Shown here in pieces: positions 16,795-62,418 of a DNA stretch of 64,000 bases. The DNA comes from Athripsodes cinereus (Eukaryota > Arthropoda > Insecta > Trichoptera > Leptoceridae): assembly GCA_947579605.1 (NCBI GenBank), contig OX388317.1:24323384-24387383 (forward strand). The letters are read 5' to 3'. The translations under genes and the position numbers were made by a program. Within the stretch, counting starts at the first letter, position 1; each line of letters begins with the position of its first letter. The notes beneath the pieces are model-generated. The model was not told the origin of the DNA and did no database searches. It saw only the letters and a list, made by a program, of their open reading frames with translations.

Positions 16795-17735
16795 AAAAGA
16801 AACAACAGAACTAAAAGTCGCTATCCTGGAGAGAAATCATTGTATGATAATATGTTAAGAATACTTGTTATTTTTTTATTGTTTAACTGGATTTGTGCAC
16901 AACGTGCAGATGACAAAACCAATCACATATCTTGACTGGAGAACTATGTTTAGAAACAATAGAACCAAAAGATAATCGCTATCCTGGAGATAAATCATTG
17001 TATGATATGTTAAGAATACTTGTTATTTTTTTATTGTTTAACTGGATTTGTGCACAACGTGCAGATGACAAAACCAATCACACATCTTGACTGGAGAACT
17101 ATGTTTAGAAACAATAGAACCAAAATATAATCGCTATCCTGGAGATAAATCATTGTATGATATGTTAAGAATACTTGTTATTTTTTTATTGTTTAACTGG
17201 ATTTGTGCACAACGTGCAGATGACAAAACCAATCACACATCTTGACTGGAGAACTATGTTTAGAAACAATAGAACCAAAAGATAATCGCTATCCTGGAGA
17301 TAAATCATTGTATGATATGTTAAGAATACTTGTTATTTTTTTATTTTTTACTGGATTTGTGCACAACGTGCAGATGACAAAACCAATCAGACATCTTGAC
17401 TCGAGAACTATGTTTAGAAACAATAGAACCAAAAGATAATCGCTATCCTGGAGATAAATCATTGTATGATTTGTTAAGAATACTTGTTATTTTTGTTATT
17501 ATTTAACTGGATTTGTGCACAACGTGCAGATGACAAAACCAATCACACATCTTGACTGGAGAACTATGTTTAGAAACAATAGAACCAAAAGATAATCGCT
17601 ATCCTGGAGATAAATCATTGTATGATTTGTTAAGAATACTTGTTATTTTTGTTATTATTTAACTGGATTTGTGCACGACGTGCAGATAACAAAACCTATC
17701 ACACATCTGGACTGGAGAACCATGTTTACACATGT
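16795..17735. repeat. 155-bp tandem repeat, about six copies
   Basis: Units share AATCGCTATCCTGGAGATAA, GGATTTGTGCACAACGTGCA and CTTGACTGGAGAACTATG. The AATCGCT landmark lies near 16817 (variant), 16974, 17129, 17284, 17438 and 17594, a period of 154-157 bp. The last unit diverges into sequence (AAATCTAATCGGAAG, GGCGTCCC) that also occurs downstream of Gr gene 4 at about 26800. No protein is inferred. Confidence 0.9.
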
Positions 17736-30574: not shown

Positions 30575-30582
30575 GTCCGTCT

Positions 30583-31521
30583 CTATAACATGTCGCTTCT
30601 CAAGTTTTTTTGATTCTGCTCAGAATTCTGCTGATTGAACGTGCATGGTGATATGCACTTTCTGGCTTTGTTCCCATATTTACTGTGGTAGGAGCATATA
30701 TTATTATGATAATGTTGGGAAACATTGTTTTTTGTATGTCTGTATGTTTGTGTATTATTGTGAAATTTGTTGCTACTATATTGTCTATGTGTGTTGTAGT
30801 TGGGAAAATTTCTTCTGCTGGAATGAAAATTATTAGTATTTTGTTTATGTAATGAGTCGTTGAGTTGCTTTCCCAAACGTTCTAACTTTTCAGTTAAAGT
30901 ATTTACGGATTTATTTAAAATTTCAATTTGATTATCTTTGTCACTATTGCTTTTTGTATGACACACAGCGATTTCTTGTGCCTGATAGACATTTGTTATT
31001 TTATCTGCTATTAATGCTATTTCGTCCAAGCTACCCTTGCTTGTGGTAATATGTGCTTGTACGTGTTTAGGTATGTGCTGTATCCAAAGATATTTCAATG
31101 TTGTATCATCAATATTTAAACCAATAGCTAATGATTTCATTTCTCTAAGCAATTGAGATGGTGTTTTATCTCCAAGTTGTAAATTTGAAAAGAGTTTCTC
31201 TCTGCGAGAATCTGGGGATATTCCCATTCTATTTAATATTGTATCTTTTAGTCTAGAATACATTGTTTGACATTTATCAAGATTTATAATATCGGATACC
31301 TGTGAAATTGTGTTTTGATCCAGTTGAGCAACAAGATGTGCATACCTTGTATCTTCGGATGTGATTCCTGCTAGTTCAAATTGTATGTCAATCTGCTTGA
31401 ACCAAAGTTGTAAATTGTTACTCCAAATCGGTGGTATTTTAATTGATACTCTATCTGTAAATGAAACATTCTTAGTTATATTTGATTCATCCTTGCTAGG
31501 TTTATTTGCTTGCTCAAACAT
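30583..31521 (-). CDS. Gypsy gag
   Basis: 312 residues from the ATG at 31521 (MFEQANKPSKDESN); the open frame upstream begins only with TTG. It contains PPIWSNNLQLWFKQIDIQFE, a retroviral-like Gag signature, and a C-terminal cysteine/histidine motif CSYHSKYGNKARKCISPC instead of a classic zinc knuckle. It would package element RNA. It stops 8 bases before the pol ATG. Confidence 0.93.
   Translation of the reverse strand: MFEQANKPSKDESNITKNVSFTDRVSIKIPPIWSNNLQLWFKQIDIQFELAGITSEDTRYAHLVAQLDQNTISQVSDIINLDKCQTMYSRLKDTILNRMGISPDSRREKLFSNLQLGDKTPSQLLREMKSLAIGLNIDDTTLKYLWIQHIPKHVQAHITTSKGSLDEIALIADKITNVYQAQEIAVCHTKSNSDKDNQIEILNKSVNTLTEKLERLGKQLNDSLHKQNTNNFHSSRRNFPNYNTHRQYSSNKFHNNTQTYRHTKNNVSQHYHNNICSYHSKYGNKARKCISPCTFNQQNSEQNQKNLRSDML
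30604..30610 (-). promoter_or_regulatory. -1 ribosomal frameshift site A AAA AAC
   Basis: On the minus strand the gag codons CAA AAA AAC present the heptamer A-AAA-AAC in the zero frame, 18 bases before the gag stop codon. A -1 shift there enters the pol frame, which is open from this point to the pol ATG and beyond. A downstream RNA structure was not modelled. Confidence 0.75.
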
Positions 31522-32287
31522 CTTGAGATAAATTAAATTTTTCAATTGTATTTATATAAATAATTTGCTGACAATGAAGAACAGCCTGCAATCGAAAAAG
31601 ATTTAACAAGAAAACAATTGAGTAATTAAGATTTGAAACCAGCAAACAATTCCAATGTATCCAGCACTTGTGAAAATTTTCTTAGTTTGTGACAATATTA
31701 TATAAAAAAATTTGGTATTTGTTTTCCATCCAACAGCGAATAGATCCCTGCAGCTAAACTAGCTAAAATTTAAAAACAAATTGATTAAAAAATGTAACAC
31801 ACATAAATTTGTTGTTTTAAAATTTAAAAATGTAAGATACACAAAGACAATACAAAAATTTTTAAAATATCACTTGATTGTGACAAAAATGTATAAAATT
31901 ATAAAAATTATCTTTTTTAGGTGCGCAAATTCGTGTCTGATTCGTTGTTCTGATTTTCAATAAATTAGGCTAGAATCTATTCTATATTAGATTCTGCCTT
32001 AGACTTTAGCACCTCTTGAATCACGACACGGGCTCACTCTCGGCAACGGCGGCAAAAATTTGTAAATTTGTATAAAAACTATATCGATCTGTTACACACA
32101 CTTATATTTAGGATTAAAAGATTTGAAATACAATACAATACAGCTGTTTATCTTGAATGCAAGAAAAAGTTTTAATGAAAAATTATATTTCAACAGCTGA
32201 TTGTGACAATTCGAAAATTTTCAAGGTGTTAAATTTTGTTAGGTTATGTATAATATATCAATTCAAATAATTATGTTCTTTTGTCGT

Positions 32288-35234: not shown

Positions 35235-35357
35235 GGAAACTGACATGAAATGTTTCCCATGAGGATGCACTCGACAGAACCATGTGACGAAACAAAACAA
35301 GAAAGGCAGACCACACCATCATGTGGGACTAATGATTGCCCAAGGAGAAGAAGAAGA
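35235..35357 (+). mobile_element. LINE 3' tail abutting Gr gene 5
   Basis: Clear relative of the LINE end at 32880-33020, on the opposite strand: shared CATGAGGATGC, CATGTGGGACTAAT, GATTGCCCAAGGAGAAGAAG. The (GAA)n end runs directly into the Gr coding sequence at about 35355. The ATG at 35250 used by the Gr frame lies inside it, in a frame other than that of the reverse transcriptase. Confidence 0.8.
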
Positions 35358-37685
35358 GTGGAACATGACAATTATATTTCACATTTTCTTGTAAACCTTA
35401 TTGATCCATATCCAATAATTTTCGTATGTTTTGGGGCAAAAACATTTCCTAGACATGCAATCATAAATAATATAAAACCCAAATTCCTCAAAATCAATGC
35501 AATAACTTTTGTCGTCGTAATAGCACTCTTTATTTTTATTCATATTGATTATTATATGCACGATTTTAAAAACTATGGAGAATTCCCACAAGTTTATTTG
35601 ATATCTTGGTTGTTTTTAAATTGCGTCGATACTATGTCGACATGCCTTTCGTGGAGCATGATTATGATAAAAAATATAAAATCAATATGGAAAATATTAA
35701 AAAACTTTTTGCACATTCATAAAATTATTCCGCGCGTGAATTTTTCAAATAAAGGCTTAAGAAAACTCAAAATGTGGTATCTATCAAATTTAATAATTAT
35801 GTTATCTTTCACAACCTCTGCATATTTCACAGGAACAAGAGAATTACATTCGTGTTTTTACGACTTTATGTCCGCAATTACAATTGACACGTTATTTTAC
35901 AAATTCGTTGCAGTTTGTCAAAATACCGCATCACATTTGACTTATTTAAACAATTTGTTGCCCAGACTATTCAATTTGTCTGTACCGAATGTGAATGTCT
36001 TTATAAATTTGATACAAGACAAGACATCTCTCTTGTTAGAAGTAGAAGACACTTCACAGTGTGATGCGTTTCCATTGAGTCTAGTCATGGAGTCCTATGA
36101 GAGAATATTGAAGAATATCAAACACATCAATACTGCATTCAATCTATTGGTAAAGCAATAAACAAATTTTTGTTTTCTACAATTTTATTCACTAAACACA
36201 GTATTAAGAATTTGTCTTCTGTTTTCAGCTATTTTTTCATACCTGGAATATGATTCTTTATTTGACCACTTCTGGAACGACATTAGGAATTTCAGTAAGT
36301 TTCCTGATTTCAAAAGACATGTGTATTATATTGCATCTCCAGAAAATAATCAATTCTTGCTCAACAACAACAAATCGACAATATTAGTATTAGTACTATC
36401 TTATTCCTGTGGTATGGAGGGAAAAAAAAATTCCAGACGTTTCACCAACAGCTGTGGTAAGCATCTTCAAGGGGATGGTGTGATTGAGAAGATGACGCAC
36501 AGGGCAGAGTCCTCCTATCAATTATTGACTCACGGGAGGCTGTTTCATCTCCGGTTGCAGCTCGAATTAGCTAGACATTCACACTAACCCACGCACTTGA
36601 TGATGTTGGTATCAAAGCTGAGAATTTCTGTCCTCCAGACCGCGGCCACATAGTCCGGAACAAATTAATACTTATGACGAAAGCCTTAGATTTTACAATC
36701 CGAAATAATTCCATAAATGTTAAATACAACTTATTTTAAAGTACCTATATACAATTATACATGTTTTTATTTTTAAGAATTTTTCGCGAACAGCAGTCAA
36801 TTTGGCGTGGTTCATGTATGATTTCTATTGGACTATATTGCTGCCTTCTTTCACAGAGAATCTTCATCATTACGTTAAAAGGTCCAAAGTTATTTGCAGT
36901 AAAATAATATTGAATGGTCTCACCAATGATTCGGGTAAGAATTAGATCTGATTTATGTGTAATCACACCTCCAAAAATACTGATGAAACTTTGTACTAAT
37001 CTTACTAGCGAATCAATTATATTGATGAGACTCTAAATAGATCTTTTATCAATCATACTGATGTGATTTATTACTTTCGCATTATTATTACAATCGCATC
37101 AATTATATTGATGGAACTCTTAACTATTTTTACCATCTCATCAATGATATTGATGAAACCATCTTACTATCGCATAAATTATATTGATGAGACTTTGTAT
37201 TAGACTCACGACCGCACCAATTATATTCTTGTGACTCTTTGTTGATCTTGCTCTCTTATCAATGATACTGGTGAAACTTTGTAGTATTTTTATTATCATA
37301 ATTATCACAATACTGTTAAAACTTAGTGCTAATACCGTTGTACCGTTTGTACTTACCGTTACGTTTATGATATTGGTGACACTTTGATTATGGGAAAATC
37401 TAGATTGAAATAAAAATGACATTTTCTACCGATACAAACACAGCATTCCAGTAGTAACGTTTGTCCTACATAAGAATATCAATTTATATATTTTTGTTTT
37501 CAGAAAATGATGACTTTGATTCCTCAATCAACAGCCTGACACAAATAAGACGACTCTATAAACTTCTCCGCGCCAACAGTTACTCTATCACAGCCCTAAA
37601 CCAATTTGAGTTTGGTTACAGTTTTGTATTCTATCTATTAGGAATCATGACAATATACATGTCTATATTAAAACAATTTGAATAA
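35250..37685 (+). CDS. Gustatory receptor, cluster gene 5, with LINE-derived start
   Basis: Exons 35250-36149, 36229-36294, 36778-36934 and 37504-37685, intron phases 0, 0 and 1, 434 residues. Only the part from about residue 41 (ISHFLVNLIDPYPIIF) is receptor-like. The first 37 residues (MFPMRMHSTEPCDETKQERQ...) are translated from a LINE tail, out of the LINE's frame. No other in-frame ATG precedes the receptor part. The rest is intact: SVPNVNVFINLIQDKTSLLL, CDAFPLSLVMESYERILKN (two changes from the usual block), LHHYVKRSKVICSKI and a MTIYMSILKQFE end. It either uses the acquired ATG, is spliced from an unseen upstream exon, or is a recent pseudogene that has lost its start. Confidence 0.85.
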
Positions 37686-38167: not shown

Positions 38168-39760
38168 AATATTCACAAAATCATCATTTCATGGAAGACC
38201 TGTCAAAAATATTAATTTAAGTGTTATCGTCAAAATATTTCAAAACACTTATAAAATCGTCGGAACATGATTGAACTGTTAAAATATGCATCAAATCATC
38301 ACGTGCTTGAAGACCTGTCAAAAATATTCATATTAACATTTTGTTCGGAATTGGCCAAAATCCTACATAATCGTCATATCATAATTGAACTGTCAAATAT
38401 ATTCACAAAAACATCATGTCATGGTAGACCTGATAAAATATTTATACAAACGTTATGACTTAATTCTATCAACATACCCATATAATCGTCGGATCATGAT
38501 TGAGCTGTCAAATATATTCATAAAATTATCACATTTTGGTTATTCATATAAACGCTTCGAATAAAATCTATCAAAATACACATAAAATCATGATGAACTG
38601 TCAAACATATTCATTAAATCATCATTTCATGGTAGACCTGTCAAAAAAATCATTAAAAGGTTAAGTCAAAATCATTTGAAATACCCTTATAATCATGACA
38701 GTTGTCAAAATATGCATAAATCCATCACATCATGGTTGACCTGTCAAAATAATCATAAACGCTATGACCAAAATCTTTCAAAATACCCAAATAATCGTCG
38801 GATCATGATTGAGCTGTCAAATATTTCATAAAATTATCACATTTTGGTTGACCTGTCAAAATATTTATTAATTTAAACGCTATTTACGAAATCTATCAAA
38901 ATACCCATAAAATCATGATGAATTGTCAAACATATTCACACAATCATTATTTCATGATAGACCTGTCAAAAATATTTATAAAGAATTTGGTCAAATTCAT
39001 TCAAAATACCCACATAATGATGAATGAACTGTCAAACCATGCATAAAATTATCACATCATGGTTGGCCTGTCAAAATATTCATATAAACGCTATTTCCAA
39101 AATCTATCAAAATAGCCATAAAATCATGATGAACTTTCAAACATATTCACACAATCATCATTTCATGATGGACCTGTCAAAAATATTTATAAATAATTTG
39201 GTCAAATTCATTCAAAATACCCACATAATGATGAATGAACTGTCAAACCATGCATAAAATTATCACATCATGGTTGACCTGTCAAAATATTCATATAAAC
39301 GCTTCGAATAAAATCTATCAAAATACACATAAAATCATGATGAACTGTCAAACATATTCATAAAATCATCATTTCATGGTAGACCTGTCAAAAAAATCAT
39401 TAAAAGGTTAAGTCAAAATCATTTGAAATACCCTTATAATCATGACTAACTGTCAAAATATGCATAAAGCCATACATAAAGCCATAAAACCAAAATCATG
39501 GTTGACCTGTCAAAATAATCATAAAAACGCTATGACCAAAATCTTTGAAAATACCCAAATAATCTTCGAATCATGATGGAACTGTTAAAATATGTATAAA
39601 ATCATCAAACGCTGGAAGACCTGTCAAAAATACTCGTATTGTCATTTTTTTCAAAATCGGCCAAAAATATTGATAATCGTCATATCATGCTTGAAAAATC
39701 AAATAGATTCACAAAATCATCATGTCATGGTAGACCTGTCAAAATATTTATATAAACGCT

Positions 39761-41668: not shown

Positions 41669-42263
41669 AGATCTCCGTGATAACATTTTCCACCACATAT
41701 ATATATATATATATATATAATCATGACTGAACTGTCAAAATATGCATAAAACCATCATATCATGGTGGACCTGTCATAATAATCATATAAACGCTATGAC
41801 CAAAGACTTTCAAAATACCCGTATAATCATGGTTACCTGGCAAATATATTCATAAAATCATCATTTCATGGTAGATCAATCAAAAACATTCATGAAAATG
41901 TTTTGGTCAGAATCTTTGAAAATACCATAAAATCGTCGGATCATGATTGAACTGTCAAATTTATTCATTAAATCATCACATCATTGTTAACCTGTCAAAA
42001 TATCCATAAAAACCTTTTTTCCAAAATCCATTAAAATACCCTTAAAATCATGATGAACTGTCAAACATATTCATAAAATCATCATTTCATGGTAGACCTG
42101 TCAAAAATATTCATTAAAAAGTTTGATCAAATCTTTGAAAATACCCATATAATCGTCTGGTCATGATTGAACTGATAAAATATGCATAAAATCATTAAAC
42201 GCTGGAAGACCTGTCAAAAATATTCATATTTGCATTTTGTTCAATTACGGTAAAAATTTTTGC

Positions 42264-42443: not shown

Positions 42444-43384
42444 GGAATTCTACTACCTAAACACCGACACAGTGAATAAATTTTTGCATAATCGTCATAT
42501 CATGCTTAAAAAATCAAATAGATTCACAAAATCATCATGTCATGTTTGACCTGTCAAAATATTCATATAAACGCTATGACCAAAATCTATAAAAAAAAAC
42601 ATAAAATCAATAAATATATTATATTAATTAAATCATCATTTCATGGTAGTCCTGTCAAACATATTCAGTAAACGGTTTGGTCAAAATCATTCAAAATACC
42701 AATTAAATCATGACTAAACTGTCAAAATATGCATTAAACCATCACATCATGGATGACCTGTCAAAATAATCATATAAACGCCATGACCAAAATCATTCAA
42801 AATACCCATAAAATCATGAGTGAACTGTCAAAATATGCATAAATCTATCACATTATGTTTGATCTGTCAAAATAATCACATAAAACCTATGACAATTCTT
42901 TCAAAATACCCATATAATCATGATTACCTGTCAAATATATTCATAAAATCATCATTTCATGATAGACCTGTCAAAATATTCATATAAACGAAATGACCAA
43001 AATTTATCAAAGTAGGTACCCAAAAAAACATGACGAAATGTCAAACGTATTCATAAAATCATCATCATGGTAGGCCTGTCAAAGTGACTGTATACACAGT
43101 ATATACATATACATGCAGGCATGTTGAGATGACCGGAATGTTAGGTATTTTTTTTAATTAATTGTGGAGCATGGTATTGGATAAAAGCTGTCCACTGAAA
43201 GATTTACCTTTTTTTAACTTTATGTAATTATTGCCTGTTTTGTCCATTTAACATTTATAAAATAAAATAAAAATGTTCATTAAAGGGTTTGGTCAAAATC
43301 ATTCAAAATACCCATATAATCGTCGGATCATGATTGAACTGTTAAAATATGCATAAAATCATCAAACGCTGAAAGACCTAATAA

Positions 43385-43729
43385 TTTTTAAAATGAAACA
43401 CGATATTTAGTTATTCCACTATTGACTTTATTTATTTTTGCGAGCCGGCTTCTGCTTCCGCTCTCATCGTCAGGCAAAAGTAAAGTGAAGCTTCATTACA
43501 AGTTAAGTATGTGACAAACAGAAAACAATGGGTAAAAATTTAAATTAAAAAGATAAAAACACATCTTTTCAATTTTAATTTTTACCCATTGTTTTCTGTT
43601 TGTCACATACTTAACTTAAAATGAAGCTTCACTTTACTTTTGCCTGACGATGAGAGCGGAAGCTCTTGAAAGCCGGCTCGCAAAAATAAATAAAGTGGAA
43701 TAACTAAATATCGTGTTTCATTTTAAAAA
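43385..43729. repeat. Foldback repeat with hammerhead-like motif, copy 2
   Basis: Long inverted repeat (about 170-bp arms) sharing its outer part (ATGAAACACGATAT...) and inner core (GCGAGCCGGC) with copy 1. The right arm keeps a complete motif at 43638-43685. The left arm has a short deletion that removes the GAAA box and part of stem II. Confidence 0.85.
43638..43685 (+). ncRNA. Hammerhead-like ribozyme motif, right arm of copy 2
   Basis: In order: TTTTGC (stem I), CTGACGA core, T, GAGAGC-GGAA-GCTCTT (stem II with GNRA loop), GAAA, palindromic GCCGGC (stem III, could dimerise), TC, then GCAAAA completing a 6-bp stem I. Predicted cleavage follows TC at 43679. One unpaired U between the core and stem II departs from consensus. 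Short-stem-III hammerheads of this kind are reported from Penelope-like retroelements. Activity is not shown. Confidence 0.6.
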
Positions 43730-47818: not shown

Positions 47819-48400
47819 ATATCATGATTGAACTGTCAAATTTATTCACAAAATCATCATGTCATGGTATACATGATAAATTATTCATATAAACGCTTTT
47901 TCCAAAATCTATCAAAATACCTATAAAATCATGATGAACTGTCAAACATAATTATTCAAAAAATCATCACTTCATGGTAGACCTGTCAAAGAATTCATTT
48001 AAGTGTTTTGGTCAGAATCTTTCAAAATACCCATATAATCTTCGGATCATGATTGAACTATCAAGTTTATTCCCAAAATCATCATGTCATGGTATACCTG
48101 ATAAAATATTCATATAAACGCTATTTACAAAATCTATCAAATAACCCATGTTATCATGATGAACTGTCAAACATATTCAAAAAATCATCATTTCACGGTA
48201 GACCTGTCAAAAATATCAATTTAAGAGTTTGGTCAAAATCTATCAAAATACCCATGTATTATGTAATCATGATGAAATGTCAAATATATTCATTAAATCA
48301 TGATTTCATGATAAACCTGTCAAAAATACTCATATTAACATTTTGATCAAACTTTGTCGAAAACCCTCACTATCGTCATATCATGGTTGAACTGTTGACA

Positions 48401-48937
48401 GTTGGATTTGAATATAATATATAAAATTCAGATTGGGTATTTAAATAGGTTGACTATCGGTGAGTGTGATCAATCCAGAATGATTAATCTAGAGTGGTTC
48501 AAAATATGATTAACATCTACACTTAGTCCTGGTTCCCGACATCCAATTGTGTCGAAAAATTCATAACATATTCCCTTGAATATGTATTTTTAATAAAAAC
48601 TTATTCTAAATATTACTGGTGTAGGTAGTCCTATAGAACAATTCATTAAATAATTGAAAGATAATGAAAATATCTCTTTGTTAATTAAAATAATATTAAA
48701 AAAATGTTATTTCACATTTAATCATCTAATTGCTTAGGAATAATATTATGTGAACACATTATTATAGTTATGGAAAGTATCATAACAACTCTTATTCTTT
48801 AACTTATTTCATTTCTTGGCAGACCACCAGTGATTTTCGAATTATTTTCATTTGTACAAAAAAATATATATGTTTTTAAGTAAAAACCGGTATCGAAAAT
48901 ATGAATAAAAATTTGAAGAATATTTTTAGAAACAGTG
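48401..48937. other. Upstream region of Gr gene 6
   Basis: Holds the short dispersed repeat GGTTGACTATCGGTGAGTGT at 48449-48515. Otherwise AT-rich, presumably including the promoter. Confidence 0.4.
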
Positions 48938-51842
48938 ATGAAAATTCAGAGGAATACGAGTATGACACAATTTTTTTGTCATCTTCTGGATCCTTATCCA
49001 ATATTGTTTATCATAGTTGGCACAAAAACGTTTTCAAAGAGTGTAAAAATTGAAACACAAAAGCCTTCAATTTATAAATTGAATATAGTTATTATATTAT
49101 TTTTAATTGTATATTATTTAAGTGTACGTTTGAAAGATTTGATTGAATTTATGAGCGGTGACACATATCCATTTGTGTATTTGGTTTCGTGGATATTTTT
49201 AAACTATGTCGAAACTGCTTCAACATTTCTTTCGTGGTTTATAATTATGGTGAAAAATGTAAAATATGTCTGGAATACTGTGCAAAACTTTATGTTCATC
49301 CATAAAATGAATCCAGGCATTAAAGTATCTAAAAATGGTTTAAAAGTGATAAAAAATGGCTATTTATCATATTTTATAGTATTGCTTAGTTTTGTGACAA
49401 TCTGTTATTTAACAGGTTTAACAAATTTACACTCGAGTGTTTACGATTTTTTGTCTGCGCTTTTAATAGATTCTTTATCATATAAATTTATAGCAATTTC
49501 TCAAGGTGCAACATCATATTTAACTTATTTAAACAATCTTCTTATGAAACTCTTCAATTTGTCTGTACCGAATGTGAATGTCTTTATAAACTTGATACAA
49601 GAAAAGACATCTCTATTGTTAGAAGCAGAAGACACTTTACAGTGTGATGTGTTTCCATTGAGTCGTGTCATAGAGTCCTATGAGAGAATATTGAAGAATA
49701 TCAAATACATTAATTCTACATTTAATTTTTTGGTAAGTTATTGCTTCTCGCAAAGTTTGCTCGAAGTATTGACGAAAAGATGTTAATTTTTTATAATTAA
49801 ATTAATATTCTTTATATTTGCAGCTATTTTTTCGTTCCTGGATTTTAGTTCTCTATATAACGACTACGGCGACATCTTGTGTATATGTAGTAAGTTAACC
49901 GATTATAAATTGAAACATTTAGAGGGTGAAATCACTTGTTCGTGGTTGGACTGAATGTCCCCCAACGTTTCGCCTACAGCTATGGTAGACATCTTCAAGG
50001 ATGGGGTATGGATATCATATAACGCCGGCCATGAGAGCCTAAGGTCTTACACTAAAAGGGTGGTCGATAGCTTTATTTTGTTTTGTTTCTAGTGTTGTGA
50101 ATTTAATGTTGTTCAATTTAATTAATTGTAATTTTAAATAATTTGCGATAGTTTGGATCTGAAAGAGAGGGTGTAAAGAAAGCGCGAATGTCCGAGAATT
50201 TCGTGACTCGAAATCATTCTTAAACTTATGAACTTGATTTTTAAGTTTTATAATCATAAAGCATTTACATAGATACTCCTGAAAATACAGATACCGTACG
50301 CCTTCGAAAGCTTTTGTGTCTTTTTTATAAGTGAAGATGTATTAATTATCATAAGATAATTTTGTGATTTTGTATAAGCGTAATCACAAAATTGACAATC
50401 ATGTATATTTTTACTTTTTAGGATTTTCAGACATTGTTAACCAACTGTTTTTGGCTTCTGTATGATATCTATTGGCTTGTTATTTTATCTTCTACTTCAG
50501 AATTTATTCATCATCATATGAAGAGATCAAGAGTCATCTGTAATAAAATACAGATCAAAAATCACGTTGAAGGTAAATATAAGCTAGCCCATTAGAACAA
50601 GCAAACGAATGTTTGTATTTAGGTTATTTGTTCCAGAGAGACTGAAAGTGTAAAAATGATATCATAACATAACAGACATAGACAATTTACACAGATCGAG
50701 CTAGTCCCAAATGAATCTTGTTTTATGGGTACTAACGCGACGATACACACATATACAGTGCACTACATGTAAAATATATACATGTAACACCCAGGCCCAG
50801 GACAATTTGAATAAGGTAATTCTTCACTTTGCTCTGGCCGGGAATCGAACCCGGGACCTCGTGACTCAAAGGCAAGAGCGTTACCTCCACGCCACACCGG
50901 CCGTCACATCGAAAGGAGAAAGTTGCGGGCAACAAAATAAATTATACAATCCGACCAATAATTGCAAATATACATAATTCCGGGTTAGTTGGAAGACATC
51001 GCATCTTAGCAATAAATTCGCCTACTGTACATTGAATTGTATAACTGATATTTATATGACACTGTTTTATTTTGTAATATTGTAACCAATGTACAGTGAA
51101 GAATAAAATAAATAAATAAATAAATTCTATCACAGGTAAAAGGTTGTTGCTCTCGGCAATCTCATCGCTAATATAGATTTATACAATCAACTTGGATATG
51201 ATTGCAGAATGTAAGGTGGAATGAAAGAGAAATATATTTAGTAGATTTGAGACCGTTGAGAGGGATATGTGTTTAAAGTCTAGGAGATGTGCTATATGAG
51301 AAGAATGTGAAATGAAAGTCAGTTTAATGGTGCTTTTGACATGTGGAAAGAATAAATAGGACAGTAACAAAAAAGAAAGGTCCATGGACATCGTTGAGAA
51401 ATAGTACTCAAGGAGGATTATATGGTTAGCAGTTTACCTGCGCCGATCGGCGTTCCTGTGTGCCTACTATGTGCGTGTTCATTGAAATGCATGTAACCGG
51501 TGGCGCCGGTAGACGCAGGCATCGAAAAGCAGGTAATCTGCTTTCTTTGTGTTTACACCATTAACTCTTGACATAATCTAAATACAATCTTTATCTTGTC
51601 TTGATCGTACGAATCGATAAAAGGAACGATATTTTTATTACTTCTTGTTACCTTTTTCAGGATATGAAGAATCTGAATCAACAGCCGAGAACCTGGTACA
51701 ATTAAGAATTCTCCAGCAACTCTTAAATAGCAATAAACATTGTATAACAGCTCTGAATCTTTATGAGTTTGGCTATAGTTTTATACTGTATTTATTGGGT
51801 GTTATGACAATGTATCTTTCCATATTAAAAGGATTTGAATAA
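48938..51842 (+). CDS. Gustatory receptor, cluster gene 6
   Basis: Exons 48938-49732, 49824-49889, 50422-50572 and 51661-51842, intron phases 0, 0 and 1, 397 residues. The start is ATG 48938 (MKIQRNTSMTQFFCHLLDPY); a GTG just before it was ignored. It carries SVPNVNVFINLIQEKTSLLL, CDVFPLSRVIESYERILKN, exon 2 LFFRSWILVLYITTTATSCV plus YV, exon 3 WLLYDIYWLVIL and HHHMKRSRVICNKI, and exon 4 ending GVMTMYLSILKGFE. For exon 3 the TTTTAG acceptor was chosen over a second AG nine bases later, because it aligns with gene 7. Intron 3 contains a tRNA-derived SINE. Probable taste receptor channel. Confidence 0.93.
50720..50905 (-). mobile_element. tRNA-derived SINE
   Basis: On minus the head has A-box-like TGGCGTGGAGGTAACGC and B-box GGTTCGATTCC within a good T-arm (CCGGG...CCCGG), the RNA polymerase III promoter of tRNA-derived SINEs. 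A 3' region follows (GTCCTGGGCCTGGGTGTTAC). The 5' GCCGGTG does not pair with the 3' segment after the T-arm, so it is not a functional tRNA. Confidence 0.75.
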
Positions 51843-54070: not shown

Positions 54071-54883
54071 ATTAATTCTTTCAGTACTTTATGCTATACT
54101 AAATTATGATCGGGATATTGAGAATCTCTACTAAAATGATTCCAACAAAGAAAAATGCTATCCTATGTGAGAATAAATGAAAAGTTATTCCCAGTTAATG
54201 ACTATACTAAGTGTCGTATTTCAAGGTAGGGCCTACATCGGATATGTTTTTCATTTATAAAAAAATCACACTAACTGTAGTATCTGCACTTACGTCCGTT
54301 AGTGAGGTATTATTTTGATTAATTCGTAGATACGACAACAAATCAGAAAGCTGTTCCAGGATAACAGCAGTAGCTACAGCTGTGATCTTCGGTGAGAACA
54401 TGCGTATCAAATCAAAATACATGGTGGCGGTCATAACTCAGTTTTGTCAAAAAAGTCAGTTACGACAGTTAGTCAGACGAGGGACGATATGAGAAACAAT
54501 TTAATGTCTTTTTGTAAAAACTAATATAATGATAATTGCATTTCTTCAAATTAAAGCTGTTTAGAAATTAAAAGTGCTGAGTTTAATAAAAACAACATTT
54601 ACATATTGACAATTACAACATTACAAGTAGGTACCTACTAAAGGAATTAGTTGATTGATTAGCTATCGTAAACTTTTATAAAGCTCCAATATATTTTAAT
54701 CATTACCTACTAACACATTTGATTAAACGGTCGAAAATATTTGATATCCAAAATAAATAAATAAATAATATATATATGAAGGTGAAGGTTTTACTCCAAT
54801 TCACTGCGTACAGTCGGGCAGAGACTTGGCTCATGCCTTTGCATACGGAACGAGGCTCGGCCCGTCACCGGAATATGCAGTTT

Positions 54884-54972
54884 GGATTTGTCGAAGAGAT
54901 GTTATGTTTCGACATTGGCGCATGTGTCTCATCAGGACCATCTTACATAATGGCCGACACAACATCAAATCC
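54884..54972 (-). ncRNA. Type III hammerhead ribozyme, array 1 unit A
   Basis: Minus strand, 5' to 3': GGATTT, GATGTTGTG (stem III), TC, then GGCCAT / loop TATGTAAG / ATGGTC (stem I, 6 bp with one G-U), CTGATGA, GACA...TGTC (stem II with the consensus G-C closing pair), GAAA, CATAACATC (stem III, 9 bp with one wobble) and an outer AAATCC pairing with GGATTT. Cleavage is expected after GUC, between 54956 and 54955. All conserved core nucleotides of the hammerhead consensus are present. Self-cleavage itself is inferred. Confidence 0.93.
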
Positions 54973-55196
54973 AGTATGCGAGGAGCATCGCATATTATGA
55001 AGACTGTATGATCTAATTTTCATCCGAAATGCATGTACAACATGCACCTCATGAATGAAAGATCATTTGATTTTACGCAGGAGACAGTATGAAGGTGAAG
55101 GTTTTACTCCAATTCACTGCGTACAGTCGGGCAGAGACTTGGCTCATGCCTTTGCATACGGAACGAGGCTCGGCCCGTCACCGGAATATGCAGTTT

Positions 55197-55285
55197 GGAT
55201 TTGTCGAAGAGATGTTATGTTTCGACATTGGCGCATGTGTCTCATCAGGACCATCTTACATAATGGCCGACACAACATCAAATCC
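55197..55285 (-). ncRNA. Type III hammerhead ribozyme, array 1 unit B
   Basis: Same sequence and fold as unit A, 313 bp away. Expected cleavage between 55269 and 55268. Cleavage at both sites would release a 313-nt monomer. Confidence 0.93.
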
Positions 55286-55318
55286 AGTATGCGAGGAGCA
55301 TCGCATATTATGAAGATC

Positions 55319-55959
55319 ATACGGACGGCGTTATGCAGAAAGCATCCAACCCACAATTTGTCGAAAATGAGTTAGATATGTCATCAAATAGCCAAACATG
55401 AAATCTTTATTTGCTGAAAACATCCAACCCCCATCTAACCTCAATAAGCTGTCATTTCTATTTTTTCTAACCCACACCTATTATATGAGATAAAATAACG
55501 TAAAAGGCATCCATGTGGTTTGAATGTATTTTGCTTTTTATTGGTGTGCAAATATTGCCATACAAAATTTAAGTGAGAAAGCGTCCATGTGGTATAAACG
55601 TTATCAACGGAATAAAAATAAACCTGTTAAACCATTTACGAAATACGTCCATGTGGGTTGGACGTTTCTTACATACTCCACGACTGTTATTCGTCTATGC
55701 ACGCATTTAATCTAGAAACATCTATCCCACATAGATGTTTTCTATGAATTGTTTATAGTGCCATTTGCATTGTCAGTTTCGATATCGCTTGGCGTTTTAC
55801 TTGTTTTTATTTTAAATTAAAGTGAATATTTATATATTTCTTTATTTATTTTGTTATATGAATGATGATGTGCAAGAAGAATAAAATAAATAAATAAAAA
55901 AATTTAACGTATGACTAGTTTTTTTTTATAAAAATCAACCGTTTGATACCATGAACTTC
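55319..55959. other. Array 1 flank with repeated CATCCAACC-type motifs
   Basis: No gene. Short motifs CATCCAACCC and GCATCCATGTGG recur near 55344, 55420, 55507 and 55580, as they do at 57380-57510 and 57690 near array 2. This suggests both flanks belong to one repeat family. Confidence 0.5.
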
Positions 55960-56440
55960 TTCTTCTTCTCGTGCCGTATCAGGTCCCCCCGACGTTGGCA
56001 ATCACTCTGGCGAAGGCTTCTCTATCTTGCACGACCCGGAACAGCTCCCCCACATGTCTCATCCCGGTCCAGTCTCTTATGTTGCGCAGCCAAGACGTTT
56101 GTCTTCTACCAGGACCACGCTGCCGCTCAATTGTCCCCATCAGTATCAGCTGGAGCAAACTATACTTATCGCCCCGCAGAACGTGACCCAGATATTGGTT
56201 GGAGGCATTCGAGATGTGGTTGCACAGGAGAATGCTTCGCATACCATGGACAGATTTGGTCAGCAGCTCGGAGGTTTTGAGAAGAGCCAATTGCAGTAGA
56301 CAGCTGCTGAAGAACGCTAACGCTGGTCCGTAAGATTTCATACCATGAACAGAGGAAAATATATTTGCAGTTTGGCAAAGAAACTCCAGAACACCAAAAA
56401 ATCTTTTAAGGTGGAGCTGTTGTAGAATGGAGTGATACAG
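55960..56440 (-). pseudogene. Non-LTR retrotransposon tail
   Basis: On minus: YLGHVLRGDKYSLLQLILMG, RRQTSWLRNIRDWTG and FRVVQDREAFARVIANVGGT, a LINE reverse transcriptase C-terminus. It lies between the two ribozyme arrays. Confidence 0.8.
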
Positions 56441-57205
56441 CAAAATATCTATGTGTCACACTAAACAAAAAGCTGCTGTGGAATAGACACGTCGACAAAG
56501 TAGTCGAAAATGGTTTGGACATGCGTCCTCAAAATTAACGAGTTAGGCAAGAAGAATTTAGTCATCCCCTTTTGAGTACCCGGACACATCGGGCTTGAGG
56601 GAAATGAACGAGTTGATAAGCTGGCAAGAAAGGGTGTGGCAACGCAACTCTATGGACCAGAACCATTCTGTGGTTCGGGACATACGTTTTTCCAAGAGGG
56701 AATCAATAAGAAAGGGAGACTGGAATGAAATGAAGTATGGAAAGGCTTAGGCAAGCCAAGAAACTACTCGGAGGATATAACTTCAGAAGATCCAAGGCTT
56801 GCACTAACCTAAGTAAGACAAGTGACGGGCTTCCTAACGGGTCACTGCAGACTCAGGGAACACTTACGCAAACTGGGACTTGAAGAAGACAGCACCTGTA
56901 GATTCTGTGAAGAAGAGGCCGAGACTCCTCGACATCTCTTGGCGGACTTGCAATGCCGTAAGATGTCTAGGACTTGAGGATTCGCTTTGACTGGCAACAC
57001 CAGGAAAGCTTAGTAGGGGGAGTACAATAGATCTTATAGGTCGCAGTGTATACTATACCCCACTCTCCACACCTTGGATCCCCTCAAGATCCTGGACTTC
57101 ATAAGATGTCTACGACTTGAGGATTTGCTTTGACTGGCAACACCAGGAAAGCTTAGTAGGGGAAGTACAATAGATCTTATAGGTCGCAGTGCATACTATA
57201 CCCCA
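56438..57205 (+). pseudogene. Non-LTR retrotransposon RNase H/C-terminal fragment
   Basis: On plus: VPGHIGLEGNERVDKLARKG (RNase H end), QVTGFLTGHCRLREHLRKLG and CRFCEEEAETPRHLL (zinc-like motif), with several stops. Its last part is tandemly duplicated: 56962-57062 and 57107-57205 share TTTGACTGGCAACACCAGGA and ATCTTATAGGTCGCAGTG. Confidence 0.8.
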
Positions 57206-57721
57206 AGATATAAAAAATAGATACCTAGTGTATGTTACATAAGGTATATAGATAACTGTTTATTTTATTGAGTTTTTCTAGGCAGGTAAGTATTTCTTAA
57301 ACATACAATTCCTTTGAAAGATTTTGCAAAATAGGTATCCAATGATGAAAAAATTGCACTTTTTTAGTACAATCAATCCACTTCTATAAAAAAATACAAT
57401 AGATTATCGGGGTTGCATTTATTTGCAGAATGCATCCAACCCACTTATATAAAAATATCAAAAGAATATTGAGGTTGCACCTAATTTGTAGAATCCATCC
57501 AACCTAATAAATACTATTTAAATACCTAAAAATTGACATTACACGTTTTTTGACAATTACAGAATAATTAGGAACTTGTAACAGCTGATACTACGTGAGA
57601 AAAATATACTCATATGCATTTGTATAGTCGTGAGATGTTTTTGTAAAGTTGATTTTTGAAACGCCATTTTCTCAGAATGGTGTTTTGTGGGTTGGATGTT
57701 TTCTGCATAACGCCGTCCATA
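57206..57721. other. Array 2 upstream flank
   Basis: No gene. Contains GAATGCATCCAACCCACTTA and GAATCCATCCAACC units. On plus just before the array, GTGGGTTGGATG and GCATAACGCCGTCCAT match the 5' flank of array 1. Confidence 0.5.
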
Positions 57722-57923
57722 CAGTCTCAAGAGCCAAGTCTCTGGCAGAGACTTGGCTCTTGCCTTTGCAAGACTGTACGCAGTGAAATAGAGTAAAACA
57801 TTCATCTTATATTATCTGCGTAAAATTACATGATCTTTCATTGATGGAATGCATGTTGTACATGCATTTCGAATGAAAATTAGATCATACAGTCTTTCAT
57901 AAATGCGATACTCCTCGCATACT

Positions 57924-58013
57924 GGATTAAATGTTGTGTCGGCCATTCTGCGAGATGGTCCTGATGATACACATGATCACAATGTTGAAACACAACACCT
58001 TTTCGACGAATCC
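57924..58013 (+). ncRNA. Type III hammerhead ribozyme, array 2 unit C
   Basis: GGATT, TGTTGTG (stem III, 7 bp), TC, GGCCAT / TCTGCGAG / ATGGTC (stem I), CTGATGA, TACA...TGTT (stem II, closing pair U-U instead of G-C), GAAA, CACAACA, outer AATCC. Expected cleavage after 57940. The weaker stem II closing pair may reduce activity relative to array 1. Confidence 0.85.
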
Positions 58014-58236
58014 AATCTGCATGTTTTGGTGACAAGCCGTGCCTCGTCCCGTATGCAAAGGCAAGAGCCAAGTCTCTGCCAGACTGTACGCAGTGAAATG
58101 GAGTAAAACATTCATCTTATATTATCTCCTGCGTAAAATTACATGATCTTTCATTGATGGAATGCATGTTGTACATGCATTTCGAATGAAAATTAGATCA
58201 TACAGTCTTTCATAAATGCGATACTCCTCGCATACT

Positions 58237-58326
58237 GGATTAAATGTTGTGTCGGCCATTCTGCGAGATGGTCCTGATGATACACATGATCACAATGTTG
58301 AAACACAACACCTTTTCGACGAATCC
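58237..58326 (+). ncRNA. Type III hammerhead ribozyme, array 2 unit D
   Basis: Same as unit C, 313 bp downstream. Expected cleavage after 58253. Confidence 0.85.
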
Positions 58327-58533
58327 AATCTGCATGTTTTGGTGACAAGCCGTGCCTCGTCCCGTATGCAAAGGCAAGAGCCAAGTCTCTGCCAGACTGT
58401 ACGCAGTGAAATGGAGTAAAACATTCATCTTATTAGAATTTTAGACTTAACTCATTAATAGAATTATAAACATAAATTAAACATAATAAAGTTGATATTT
58501 TCAACCGACGGTACTTGGTGGAAATTCATGTTG

Positions 58534-58776
58534 AATTAATTAAAATAAAACACTTATTTGTAGTATATCCACGGTGACTTTTTATTGGACGCGAGCCGGC
58601 TTTCAAGAGCTTCCGCTCTCATCATCAGGCTGGCGAAAAGTTTTTTCGCCAGAAAAGCCTCTGAAAAGGCTTTTCGCCAGCCTGATGATGAGAGCGGAAG
58701 CTCTTGAAAGCCGGCTCGCGTCCAATAAAAATTCACCGTGGATATACTACAAATAAGTGTTTTATTTTAATTAATT
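58534..58776. repeat. Foldback repeat with hammerhead-like motif, copy 3
   Basis: Near-perfect inverted repeat with arms over 100 bp. The core (GCGAGCCGGCTTTCAAGAGC, TTCCGCTCTCATCATCAGGC) is shared with copies 1 and 2, while the outer arms differ from theirs yet still pair with each other. Both arms keep CTGATGA, the GAGAGC-GGAA-GCTCTT stem, GAAA, GCCGGC and TC (right arm 58682-58717). Stem I is poor here (about 2 bp). Confidence 0.85.
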
Positions 58777-59456: not shown

Positions 59457-62418
59457 ATGGAATATTTCAAGAGACTTTTGAACAAATCTAAGAAATTTAA
59501 TAGTGATATTTATTCAATGACAAATACTTTTATTGCAATAATTGATCCATATCCAATGATTTTCATTATACTGGGTGTTAAAACATTTAAAAAAAGAGTG
59601 AATTTTCAAAACAGAAATTCTATCCCCAAACTCAATATTCTAACGTTTCTACATTTGATTATATTACATATTTGCATTCATGCAATAAGTATACGCGAAT
59701 ACAGAAATAATCACATGTTTCCTATGGTTTACTTAATTTCTTGGATATTTTTAAAATTGGTAGAAATAACTACAACATGTCTCTCATGGTTTACAATAAT
59801 GATAAAGAATATGAAAGCGATCTGCAAAACTGTAAATAATTTACTGTACATTCACCACATAAATCCACATATCATATTATCAAGTAAAGGCATTAAAAAT
59901 ATCAAGCTTTGGTATGTTTCTCATTATACAATCATGTTATTTTTCGTAACAGTTTCGTACGTGACAAACATGAGAAATTTTGTCTCATCCATCTACGATT
60001 TCATGTCTGCTCTCGCGATCGACTCATTGGCATATAAATATATTGCAATCAGTCAATTAAATTCATCATATTTGATTTATTTAAACAATCTACTGCCCAG
60101 ATTATTCAATTTGTCTGTACCGAGTGTGAATATCTTTATAAACTTAATACAAGAGAAGACATCTCTATTGTATGAAGCAGAAGACACTTCACAGTGTGAT
60201 GTGTTTCCATTGAGTCGTGTCATAGAGTCCTATGAGAGAATATTGAAGAATGTCAAATACATTAATTCGGCATTTAATTTCATGGTAAGCAAATATCTGA
60301 TTTGCTACAATTTAACTTAATTTTGAGTCCGGCTTGGCTAAGGGCTTTAATAATGGTGAAGCGGTGGGAATTTGTATGTTTACAATGTTGAAGAAGTTAA
60401 TTCCTTATTATGTATAACAAAATTAATTATACAGTTAATAATTCCTTATTATATAGAATTCTGCTTTTCATACAAATTGTAATTTAAGTAAATATATTTT
60501 TAACTTAGGATAAACGTAATAAGATGGATGGCAGCGGTGTTTATAGCATTGAGAGTAATATAGACTTGGTCTATATCGAAGAACATTCCAGAACGTTTTG
60601 GGGGTTGTCTGGATACTCGGAGATGGCAGATCATTACATTGAGCATGATCATTCTTTTGATATGCGCCATGGCGCCATGCGCCTTACATGTAAGGGTCTT
60701 ACATTTAGAAAACCGGTATAGCAAATTATTGGCTCTGGAAACAATAGAGATTTTAAAAAATAAAGCTAATGGCAACATTGTAAATATACAAATTCCCACC
60801 CCTTAATAATGATTAAAACTTAAGAGATTTTGGCTAAGGCCACACCCACTCCTTCCACTACTATCACACCCTTTCCTATTCTTCCTTCTTAACTTATATA
60901 ACTTAACATAATTTATATTTTTTCCAATCAGTCCTCTTGAAAATGTCAAACTGAGCTTTTGACGAAAGCGCTCGAGTTCTTTAAAAAGTTTAGTGACAAA
61001 ATTAACTTTGTTTAGAGAAATTAATATTTGTAATCATGAATTTTCACTCTGTGAATGTACAAACATTGCAATGATTTTTGTAGGTATTTTATCTATGTAC
61101 TTATCTTTGTTATATTTATATTTTTATTATTTTCAGCTATTTTTTCGATCCTGGAATTTGACACTATATCTCATTACCTCTCTGACATCTTTTGAATTCG
61201 CAGTAAGTATCATGATTCTATTTTAGAGCTATCATAAAGCTATATAATAAACCATTAAATATTAACTAAAGATCTAGTACAACTCTAGTTTAACTTAATT
61301 TTTTCTATAAATTTCGTGAAAATTACGTAATTTTATTATCACAATTGCAAACGATGTTCCATTTTCAAAGATAGGGCAAAGTTATGATAATCGAAGAGGC
61401 AACATCATCTAACAAATATTAAAATATTTCGATATTAAACCATTCCGGTCAATTCAACTCACCGATAGTCAACCTATGAATAGATATTAACTATGTAGGT
61501 ATGTTTATTTTTTCTGCTGAGATTGCCTTGGCCAAAAGCTGTTATGGTCCTAGTGCAGGGCCCTTTTTAGAATAATAGTAGATAATAATAATTTCTATAG
61601 GAATATCTTAATTTATTGAAAATTTATGAAGCTTTTTATACAAACCAATATTTATTTTCAGAGCTTCGGCCAATTATTGTTTAACGCAAGTTGGATTATG
61701 TACGACATCTATTGGATTGTACTGTTACCATTTATATCAGAGAACCTTCACCATCATAGCTATAGATCCAAAGTTATATGCAGTAAGATATTTATGATGG
61801 GATATGATAAAGGTAACCATTTTAAGGTTGTTTAAAAATAAAACCATGTTATAAATATTAGTATCTACCGTCATTTTATATCCTTATTTTGATTAAATTT
61901 TCAGTAAATTTTAAATAAATCCTCATATTTTTTATGTTACTTTTTTTATTCACTCCACAATAATATTTTGGTGTATATAGAGCAAAAACAAAATCTTTTT
62001 TTTTTTCAGAACAATCCTATTCCAGAAAATTCATTTTTCCGTGAAATTCTTAATTCTTGTTGCCATAAAATATATTTTGTAATAATATGTACCTACGATT
62101 GTTGTTTAAGAAAAATCATCCCGTTAACCGGCAATTTTATTTCTGGGATAGTGTTCTATAAACCAACATTGAAAACTCGACGAATACTCTTTTACGACTA
62201 TATCATATATTTTGTGATTGAATTTTTCTGTTTTAGGTAATGATGACTTAACTGCATTATCCAGAAGTTCGGTACATTTAAGACGTCTCCAGAGAATCCT
62301 GCATACAAACAGTTACTCCATCACAGCCCTGAACCTCTATAAGTTTGGCTACAGTTTTATATTCTATCTGCTGAGTGTCATGACAATGTACATGTCTATA
62401 TTAAAACAATTTGAATAA
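59457..62418 (+). CDS. Gustatory receptor, cluster gene 7
   Basis: Exons 59457-60284, 61137-61202, 61662-61812 and 62237-62418, intron phases 0, 0 and 1, 408 residues. It starts MEYFKRLLNKSKKFNSDIYS. It contains SVPSVNIFINLIQEKTSLLY, CDVFPLSRVIESYERILKN, LFFRSWNLTLYLITSLTSFE, WIMYDIYWIVLLP, YRSKVICSKIFMM and the ending SVMTMYMSILKQFE. In exon 4 LYKFGYSF replaces the family LYEFGYSF. Closest to genes 5 and 6 in the exon 1 end block. Intron 1 has a remnant with a hammerhead-like motif. Probable taste receptor channel. Confidence 0.93.
60935..60985 (+). ncRNA. Degenerate hammerhead-like motif
   Basis: In Gr gene 7 intron 1: CTTGAAAATGTCAAA, a long stem closed by TTTTGAC, GAAA, palindromic GCGC, TCGAG. 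The CUGANGA box is altered, so activity is unlikely. The preceding 200 bp resemble 18190-18360. Confidence 0.35.

What the first reader, a model, noticed from the sequence alone, without database searches (positions are those of the whole stretch)
54774..58435. 313-bp satellite repeats encoding complete type III hammerhead ribozymes
Four monomers carry every part of a hammerhead: GUC cleavage site, stem I hairpin GGCCAT/ATGGTC, CTGATGA, a stem II, GAAA and a 7-9-bp stem III with an outer helper helix. Stem positions were paired by hand. Spacing is 313 bp in both arrays, so transcripts would be cut into 313-nt monomers able to circularise. This is the organisation of hammerhead satellites in newts, schistosomes and cave crickets and of retrozymes. 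I know of no description of this sequence in Lepidoptera, which is absence of recall, not a search.
Basis: partly seen in the sequence, partly recalled or inferred. Interest (0 to 1): 0.92.

Follow-up and report, generated by a model that had tools for sequence, protein, structure and literature searches.

The report
Mobile element with self-cutting RNA
The two repeat arrays belong to a small DNA repeat with more than a thousand copies scattered through this genome; it carries the parts of a self-cutting RNA (complete in one of the two arrays) and likely spreads as little RNA circles that are predicted to be copied round and round back into DNA at TA-rich sites.

Summary
Array 1 (minus strand) has a complete type III hammerhead, but it scores 32.9 bits with Rfam RF00008, below the gathering score of 48.5. 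Array 2 has lost the stem II closing pair and gets no hammerhead match.

This is not a classical satellite. The genome holds at least 1149 exact copies of the hammerhead's 5' half, scattered mostly in short arrays. In 18 of 23 arrays read letter by letter the 3' end is CTTCATA (unit 86-92 or 307-313), usually against a TA microsatellite; none ends at the cleavage site. 5' ends are scattered, inverted pairs are mostly head-to-head, and units of one array share variants. This fits reverse transcription that laps a circular RNA from both strands of a TA target: a non-LTR retrozyme, with Penelope-like elements (GIY-YIG frames up to 832-887 aa here) the likely helper.

Two things are unusual for an animal-type retrozyme: the hammerhead is type III with plant-like helices, and a hairpin that would block it is kept by compensatory changes in three subfamilies. 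Self-cleavage, circles and expression are untested. Only 41% of 974 copies have the G-C closing pair, so the ribozyme may be dispensable in many lineages.

The parts
54775..55316 (-). Array 1, subfamily A: one full 313-nt unit (55087 down to 54775) preceded by a 5'-truncated unit (55316 down to 55088, unit positions 85-313); 3' end of the array at 54775
54901..54963 (-). Type III hammerhead, copy 1 (cleavage predicted between 54956 and 54955)
   Evidence: same letters as the copy scored; descriptor
55214..55276 (-). Type III hammerhead, copy 2 (cleavage predicted between 55269 and 55268); RF00008 32.9 bits, below gathering 48.5
54889..54914 (-). Competing hairpin UGUCGAA/UUCGACA that takes up the GAAA strand of the hammerhead (copy 1; copy 2 at 55202-55227)
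54768..54774 (.). TA run directly against the 3' end of array 1 (CTTCATA then TATATAT, read on the minus strand)
55317..57722 (.). Piece between the arrays: 37-nt inverted ends (55320-55356 / 57685-57721, 95% complementary) with TA beside them, likely a later MITE-like insert
   Evidence: TA duplication read by eye
57741..58433 (+). Array 2, subfamily B: rearranged start, then units 57816-58128 and 58129-58433; 3' end at the place homologous to that of array 1
57932..57997 (+). Hammerhead-like region of array 2, copy 1: stems I and III and core present, stem II closing pair U.U; no Rfam hammerhead match
58245..58310 (+). Hammerhead-like region of array 2, copy 2, same letters as copy 1

Best explanation
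Both arrays are copies of a dispersed, apparently mobile repeat of about 313 nt per unit that carries a type III hammerhead (complete in array 1), and it likely spreads as a non-LTR retrozyme: its multimeric transcripts would be cut at the hammerhead and closed into circles, and a reverse transcriptase, likely of a Penelope-like element, is predicted to copy such a circle round and round from a nicked TA-rich target. SHOWN by calls: dispersal and copy number; complete hammerhead parts in array 1; 3' ends at two unit positions, mostly against TA runs; scattered 5' ends; mostly head-to-head inverted pairs; units within an array sharing variants. INFERRED: transcription, self-cleavage, circularisation, the circle as template, priming from both target strands (which would give the head-to-head pairs, and so the inverted arms of this window), and the Penelope-like helper. 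PREDICTED only: a hairpin that shares the GAAA strand with the hammerhead switches it off, for example in the finished circle.
For: Copies: 564+585 = 1149 exact matches of the stem I/CTGANGA pattern, reversed-pattern control 0; the unit search (40 of 1800 first-look candidates scored) gave 40 loci on 17 contigs. 3' ends: in 18 of 23 arrays printed with flanks the end is exactly CTTCATA, 9 at unit 307-313 and 9 at 86-92; two more stop 3-4 nt short of it, one is the homologous place in B, two lie elsewhere. Over all listed rows 54 of 63 runs end at unit 88-97 or 308-313, none within 5 nt of the cleavage site. Of 24 ends found by the motif, 22 are followed at once by a TA run of at least 4, against 6.0% of 10015 control sites. 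In subfamily B, 21 listed rows end at the homologous place, query 305-307, the window's own among them (counted by hand). 5' ends are spread over the unit; 2 of 63 lie within 5 nt of the cleavage site, 2.2 expected. Inverted junctions: 15 head-to-head, 2 tail-to-tail. Template: 77 within-array pairs of units share a variant, permutation mean 15, none of 5000 as high; 28 against 5.7 without the largest array. Rare variants recur in partial end units and in an inverted piece (L035, L036, L027). Helper: 86 GIY-YIG matches (150 of 1102 candidates scored), 8 in open frames of 827-887 aa, 8 of 8 inverted neighbours head-to-head. A Penelope-like reverse transcriptase starts internally at two sites, on top and bottom strands alike, at AT-rich cuts (PMC11167929, abstract and passages). 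The unit folds far better than shuffles, z -5.3.
Against: No hammerhead match reaches Rfam's gathering score. Only 397 of 974 copies have the G-C closing pair of stem II (other pairs not counted), and subfamilies B and C, with U.U and A.A there, have also multiplied. Minimum-energy folds prefer the blocking hairpin over the hammerhead by 3-6 kcal/mol in A and about 13 in B, and stem II is rarely formed in the circular fold of A (about 0.06). Of 73 variant-by-array rows 55 are in one unit only and one in some units, 17 in all covering units. Some arrays are mixed: one unit of L031 and one of L041 differ from the rest, and same-strand neighbours of different subfamilies join on C25 and C4. Long arrays exist (25 units in two blocks on C4; about 34 units on C1) and could have grown by ordinary duplication. 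One run starts exactly at 133, the first base after the cleavage site. In the one Penelope-like element tested in vitro the start site was not homologous to the cut DNA, whereas here CATA meets TATA, and cleavage by its hammerhead was not needed for insertion (PMC11167929, passages). No RNA data. No reverse transcriptase domain was tested in the GIY-YIG frames.
Confidence: 0.62

Rival explanations
1. A non-autonomous retroelement that moves as a linear multimeric transcript, without any use of its ribozyme: a Penelope-like reverse transcriptase starts at CUUCAUA inside an uncut transcript, and the hammerhead is a relic.
For: 577 of 974 copies lack the G-C closing pair, yet such subfamilies have spread; PLE insertion in vitro mainly used uncut RNA (PMC11167929, passages); uniform source arrays would also give arrays that share variants.
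Against: Core and stem I/III sites differ at 1 of 38 between A and B and between A and C, against 36 of 311 over the whole A-B unit (p 0.056); the hammerhead region varies less among A copies (10 of 3419 against 105 of 13423 site-copies, p 0.001; by distinct variants p 0.08); variants differ from array to array, which needs a uniform source array for each.
Confidence: 0.25
2. Ordinary satellite DNA: tandem arrays grown and spread by unequal crossing-over, with a chance hammerhead.
For: Tandem units of nearly constant length; long arrays of 25 and about 34 units; within-array similarity.
Against: Scattered, mostly short arrays with fixed 3' ends at TA runs and free 5' ends, and 15 to 2 head-to-head junctions; the hammerhead descriptor is absent from 500 shuffles.
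Confidence: 0.08
3. A foldback-type DNA transposon whose long inverted arms are made of 313-nt repeats (the window read as one 3.66-kb element).
For: Inverted arms, each ending at the same unit position.
Against: 25 of the 40 A loci show no inverted junction; the arms here belong to two subfamilies about 12% apart; the 37-nt inverted ends bound the middle piece alone, of which the 20 fetched loci hold only short fragments without those ends (5 loci).
Confidence: 0.03

Closest known systems
Metazoan non-LTR retrozymes (Cervera and de la Pena 2020, PMC7229834; passages and sections 13 and 17 read)
   Same: Tandem units of a few hundred bp, dimers to long multimers, GC below 50%, a hammerhead per unit, strong self-pairing, PLE suspected as helper, circle proposed as template
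   Different: Theirs carry type I hammerheads, mostly free to fold in the circle; here type III, with a conserved hairpin predicted to block it. Their circles were shown on blots; none shown here
Plant LTR retrozymes (PMC4918200, passages; described also in PMC7229834)
   Same: Type III hammerhead; a blocked hammerhead in the predicted monomer fold
   Different: Theirs give circles of 600-800 nt and are dimeric, with LTRs, PBS and PPT, likely moved by Gypsy elements; here 313 nt, one to tens of units, at TA-rich sites
Type III hammerheads of termite and toad HDV-like RNAs and of dipteran genomes (PMC7936874; passages)
   Same: Type III hammerheads in insects and other animals
   Different: Those have long helices I and II with loop-loop pairing; here a 6-bp helix I with 8-nt loop and a 4-bp helix II, as that paper gives for plant ones (but a 10-nt loop II where those have 4)
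Penelope-like elements (PMC11167929; abstract and passages)
   Same: Tandem copies, internal start of reverse transcription at two sites, AT-rich targets, a hammerhead; head-to-head pairs of GIY-YIG frames in this genome
   Different: They encode the enzyme; no long frame here. Their start site was not homologous to the cut DNA; here CATA meets TATA
pDo500 satellite of Dolichopoda cave crickets (PMC2837043; passages)
   Same: Insect repeat with a hammerhead per unit
   Different: About 500-bp units, abundant satellite, counted as type I in PMC7761336 (passages)

Membership tests
Type III hammerhead ribozyme (array 1) | Open stem III, closed stems I and II, CUGANGA and GAAA core, NUH cleavage triplet | tested here: met
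Type III hammerhead ribozyme (array 1) | Score at or above Rfam's gathering cut-off for RF00008 | tested here: not met
   32.9 against 48.5 bits; 0 gathering matches
Type III hammerhead ribozyme (array 2) | Paired stem II next to the core | tested here: not met
   U.U at 10.1-11.1; no match
Type III hammerhead ribozyme | Self-cleavage of the RNA | not testable with these tools
   needs a bench assay
Metazoan non-LTR retrozyme | Dispersed tandem units of 150-450 bp with a hammerhead each | tested here: met
   hammerhead intact in part of the copies only
Metazoan non-LTR retrozyme | GC content below 50% | tested here: met
   0.444 (A) and 0.409 (B)
Metazoan non-LTR retrozyme | Type I hammerhead | tested here: not met
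   the open helix is III
Metazoan non-LTR retrozyme | Target site duplications longer than 4 bp when present | tested here: inconclusive
   17 loci compared; the shared stretches found are TA- or CATA-type repeats
Metazoan non-LTR retrozyme | Expressed as circular RNA | not testable with these tools
   no RNA data
Plant LTR retrozyme | About 700 bp between hammerheads, in LTRs | tested here: not met
   spacing 312-320 nt in the listed arrays
Plant LTR retrozyme | PBS and PPT | not tested
   not looked for
Penelope-like element | Reverse transcriptase and GIY-YIG frame in the element | tested here: not met
   longest stop-to-stop frame in three joined units of A: 89 codons
Satellite DNA | Large blocks of tandem units in one or few places | tested here: not met
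   40 loci on 17 contigs in the scored set, runs of 64-2083 nt; a few long arrays exist in other subfamilies

The most novel reading that the evidence does not exclude
An animal-type retrozyme with a plant-style type III hammerhead and a built-in off switch: one strand of the ribozyme is shared with a hairpin kept by compensatory change in three subfamilies, and one base (11.2) covaries with both partners, so that the catalytic and the blocked fold are both held by selection. Its genomic copies record, lap by lap, rolling-circle target-primed reverse transcription by a Penelope-like enzyme that starts on both strands of TA microsatellites. That would be genomic evidence for the circle-as-template step, which the retrozyme papers propose but did not show in the passages read.
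Probability: 0.4. Interest if true: 0.8.

Novelty: new variant of a known kind. Interest (0 to 1): 0.66.

Why it matters
Retrozymes are thought to move as ribozyme-made RNA circles, but the step from circle to genomic array has been a model. Here recent arrays keep the marks that this step should leave: fixed 3' ends unrelated to the cleavage site, free 5' ends, shared variants in successive units, and head-to-head pairs. A type III hammerhead in a dispersed, animal-type retrozyme narrows the gap between plant and animal retrozymes, and the competing hairpin gives a testable answer to how a self-cutting RNA can stay a circle. Dozens of nearly identical copies and long GIY-YIG frames in the same genome mean that element and suspected helper can be tested in one species.

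Tried and rejected
Foldback reading of the whole 54774-58435 stretch: rejected, because 25 of 40 loci have no inverted junction and the inner inverted ends bound the middle piece. Rfam over the whole window and over 4 kb gave no hammerhead; a 106-base stretch let the weak match through. RF00008 over the genome found nothing, but no control genome rang either, so that is not evidence. A type-I-like motif near 43644 got no Rfam hammerhead match. The pattern in prokaryote genomes gave 10 matches in 257 billion bases, about chance for 18 fixed letters by my arithmetic; none in viral contigs. A protein search with a window ORF to place the host found nothing; of five ORFs against Pfam only a reverse transcriptase/integrase polyprotein matched. 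Counts of A.A and U.U closing pairs and of the hairpin over the genome could not be obtained (tool busy).

Limits. Array statistics come from the best-scoring copies, hence the youngest: 40 of 1800 candidates scored, 150 of 152 matches listed and used. The query was cut at the end of array 1 (unit 313), so a run that goes on for some tens of letters past 313 also reads as ending at 313; of ten such ends read letter by letter nine are real and one (L049) goes on. Ends at 96 overrun 92 because the TA run resembles the unit. The windows of the test (p 3e-60) were chosen after seeing the ends. Sixteen of the 63 runs start at unit position 10 or below, partly for the same reason of the query cut. 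In one search the ends were found by the motif CTTCATA, so that call tests only the TA run. Unit comparisons used 79 units from 24 sources at 94% identity or more and 60 nt or longer; an earlier run had 86 units from 25 sources, two of them overlapping. Head-to-head junctions were counted for gaps up to 150 nt and include pieces of 86-96% identity. Covariation rests on three subfamilies. Searches list only part of their matches; totals are theirs.
Full report
Array 1 (54775-55316, minus strand) and array 2 (57741-58433, plus strand) are each made of 313-nt direct repeats and are inverted to each other. In array 1 the parts of a type III hammerhead are present twice: stem III of 10 bp, GUC, stem I of 6 bp with an 8-nt loop, CUGAUGA, stem II of 4 bp with a 10-nt loop, GAAA. 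A strict descriptor finds these two places only and none in 500 dinucleotide shuffles; with stem II left free it finds all four monomers, and 3 places in the shuffles. Infernal scores one copy at 32.9 bits with RF00008, E 5.8e-6 for 106 bases, below the gathering score of 48.5; no gathering match exists in the window, and a 4-kb search missed it. Array 2 has U.U in place of the stem II closing pair and gets no hammerhead match. So two of four monomers are complete.

The window's genome (716 Mb, 160 contigs) was then searched. The unit of array 1 gave 152 matches from 40 scored candidates out of 1800; the 150 listed rows form 40 loci on 17 contigs. The pattern for stem I plus CTGANGA occurs 564+585 times, its reversed control never. 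The unit of array 2 finds further subfamilies with units of 313, 314 and 315 nt, nearly always one length per listed array, with 25 units in two blocks on C4; C1 carries about 34 units of 315 nt followed by an inverted array. Spacings of 316 and 320 nt also occur. This is a dispersed repeat family, not one satellite block.

The ends of the arrays carry the main evidence. In the 23 arrays printed with their flanks, 18 end exactly at CTTCATA: nine at unit 307-313 and nine at 86-92. Two stop 3-4 nt short of it (L034, L036), the B array of the window ends at the homologous place, and two lie elsewhere (L045, and L049, which goes on past 313) (positions). Over all 63 listed runs, 27 end at unit 88-97, 27 at 308-313 and nine elsewhere, none near the cleavage site at 132/133. 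Ends found by the motif run straight into TA repeats: 22 of 24 at four letters or more, 18 of 24 at eight or more, against 6.0% and 1.6% of 10015 control sites. Subfamily B ends at the homologous place in 21 listed rows (counted by hand). The 5' ends are scattered with no excess at the cleavage site, though one lies exactly at 133. Target duplications could not be told from the repeats at the target (17 loci).

Fifteen of the 40 loci carry an inverted junction; of 17 such junctions fifteen are head-to-head, so that both 3' ends face outward, and two are tail-to-tail (p 0.001). The two arms of this window have the same head-to-head layout, although they belong to subfamilies A and B; the piece between them (55317-57722) has its own 37-nt inverted ends beside TA and looks like a later insert. 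Priming on both strands of one target would give such pairs.

Within an array, units share variants. Seventy-seven within-array pairs share a variant, against 15 expected; 28 against 5.7 without the largest array; none of 5000 permutations reached either value. Of 73 variant-by-array rows, 17 are carried by every covering unit, 55 by one only and one by some. Variant 80C recurs in all three covering units of L035, 74G in both of L036 including the partial end unit, 62T in all three of L045, and 24A in both pieces of L027, which face opposite ways. A reverse transcriptase that laps one circular RNA would leave this; later tandem duplication would too. Mixed arrays exist: a unit of L031 and one of L041 do not fit their neighbours, and on C25 and C4 same-strand neighbours belong to different subfamilies.

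Helper. GIY-YIG domains give 86 matches on 23 contigs (150 of 1102 candidates scored), eight in open frames of 827-887 aa and five of exactly 832; that is the size of Penelope-like proteins as I recall them, and the reverse transcriptase part was not tested. Neighbouring frames are tandem (2657 bp apart on C2) or inverted, and all eight inverted pairs under 6 kb are head-to-head. A Penelope-like enzyme starts reverse transcription inside its template at two sites, with no difference between top and bottom strand, at AT-rich cuts; its start site was not homologous to the cut DNA, unlike the CATA/TATA junction here (PMC11167929, abstract and passages). The retrozyme authors proposed circles as template and Penelope-like elements as helper (PMC7229834, section 17).

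The off switch. The unit folds well, z -5.3, but the favoured fold pairs UGUCGAA with UUCGACA downstream, which takes the GAAA strand away from the hammerhead. In a circular fold of unit A, stem III and this hairpin are about equally likely (0.48 and 0.51), while stem II is rarely formed (about 0.06); in unit B the hairpin wins. In three subfamilies all seven hairpin pairs are kept, with two compensatory changes; stem I and the inner eight pairs of stem III are kept, the inner stem II with one compensatory change, and the closing pair is G-C, U.U and A.A. Base 11.2 changes together with its partner in both folds. Blocked hammerheads are described for plant retrozymes, whereas most animal retrozyme circles leave theirs free (PMC4918200, passages; PMC7229834, section 17).

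Against an essential ribozyme: 397 of 974 copies that fit the stem II pattern have the G-C closing pair, and subfamilies without it have spread. For it: 1 of 38 core and stem I/III sites differ between A and B, against 36 of 311 overall (p 0.056), and there are fewer variants among A copies in the hammerhead (p 0.001 by copies, 0.08 by distinct variants). The case for selection on catalysis is suggestive, not settled.

Comparison with print. Nine searches of the open library listed no paper whose title or shown abstract describes a hammerhead repeat in Lepidoptera or a type III animal retrozyme; one search listed 30 of 32 papers and only 12 of 708, papers were read in passages or named sections, subscription papers are not held, and a 2010 survey was not held. 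Type III hammerheads are already reported for a termite HDV-like RNA, termite genomes and flies, with long helices (PMC7936874, passages), and PMC7761336 speaks of insects with elements that carry type III hammerheads, citing its reference 62 and work in preparation (passages). The right label is a new variant of a known kind: it works like an animal non-LTR retrozyme but fails their type I criterion.

Noticed in passing
window 43630-43690 (+); relic at 6328 (+); 58601-58709 on both strands: Another repeat has a type-I-like hammerhead layout (by eye): CTGACGA, hairpin TGAGAGCGGAAGCTCTT, GAAA, palindromic GCCGGC, then CTC followed by GCAAAA, which pairs with TTTTGC upstream. Rfam does not match it.
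   Followed up: partly
window 58555-58750: Long palindrome, seen by eye, with two inverted copies of the motif above, right after array 2.
   Followed up: no
window 16818-17728: Tandem array of 155-bp units, 5.9 copies, 97% matches.
   Followed up: no
window 38255-39468, 41720-42228, 42514-43083, 47820-48351: Four arrays of similar-looking units of about 105-115 bp, 70-81% matches.
   Followed up: no
window 8646-9509, 14522-15388, 20341-21186, 23579-24406, 35250-36161, 48935-49786, 59457-60320: A family of related ORFs of 275-303 aa sharing a motif like DVFPLSR.IESY; the four tested have no Pfam match and the one searched has no homologue at E 0.001. They look like insect chemoreceptor exons, by recall only.
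   Followed up: partly
window 27530-31545 (-): Long open polyprotein with RVT_1, RNase H and integrase, Gypsy-like by its domain order, with a gag-like ORF next to it by eye.
   Followed up: partly
G000:C1:37482878-37494239: About 34 units of 315 nt facing an inverted array; these places are absent from the C1 rows listed, so their hammerhead 3' half does not fit that pattern.
   Followed up: partly
L033, L037, L038 flanks: Three copies sit in the TA run of what looks like the same flanking repeat, a possible source of empty-site comparisons.
   Followed up: no
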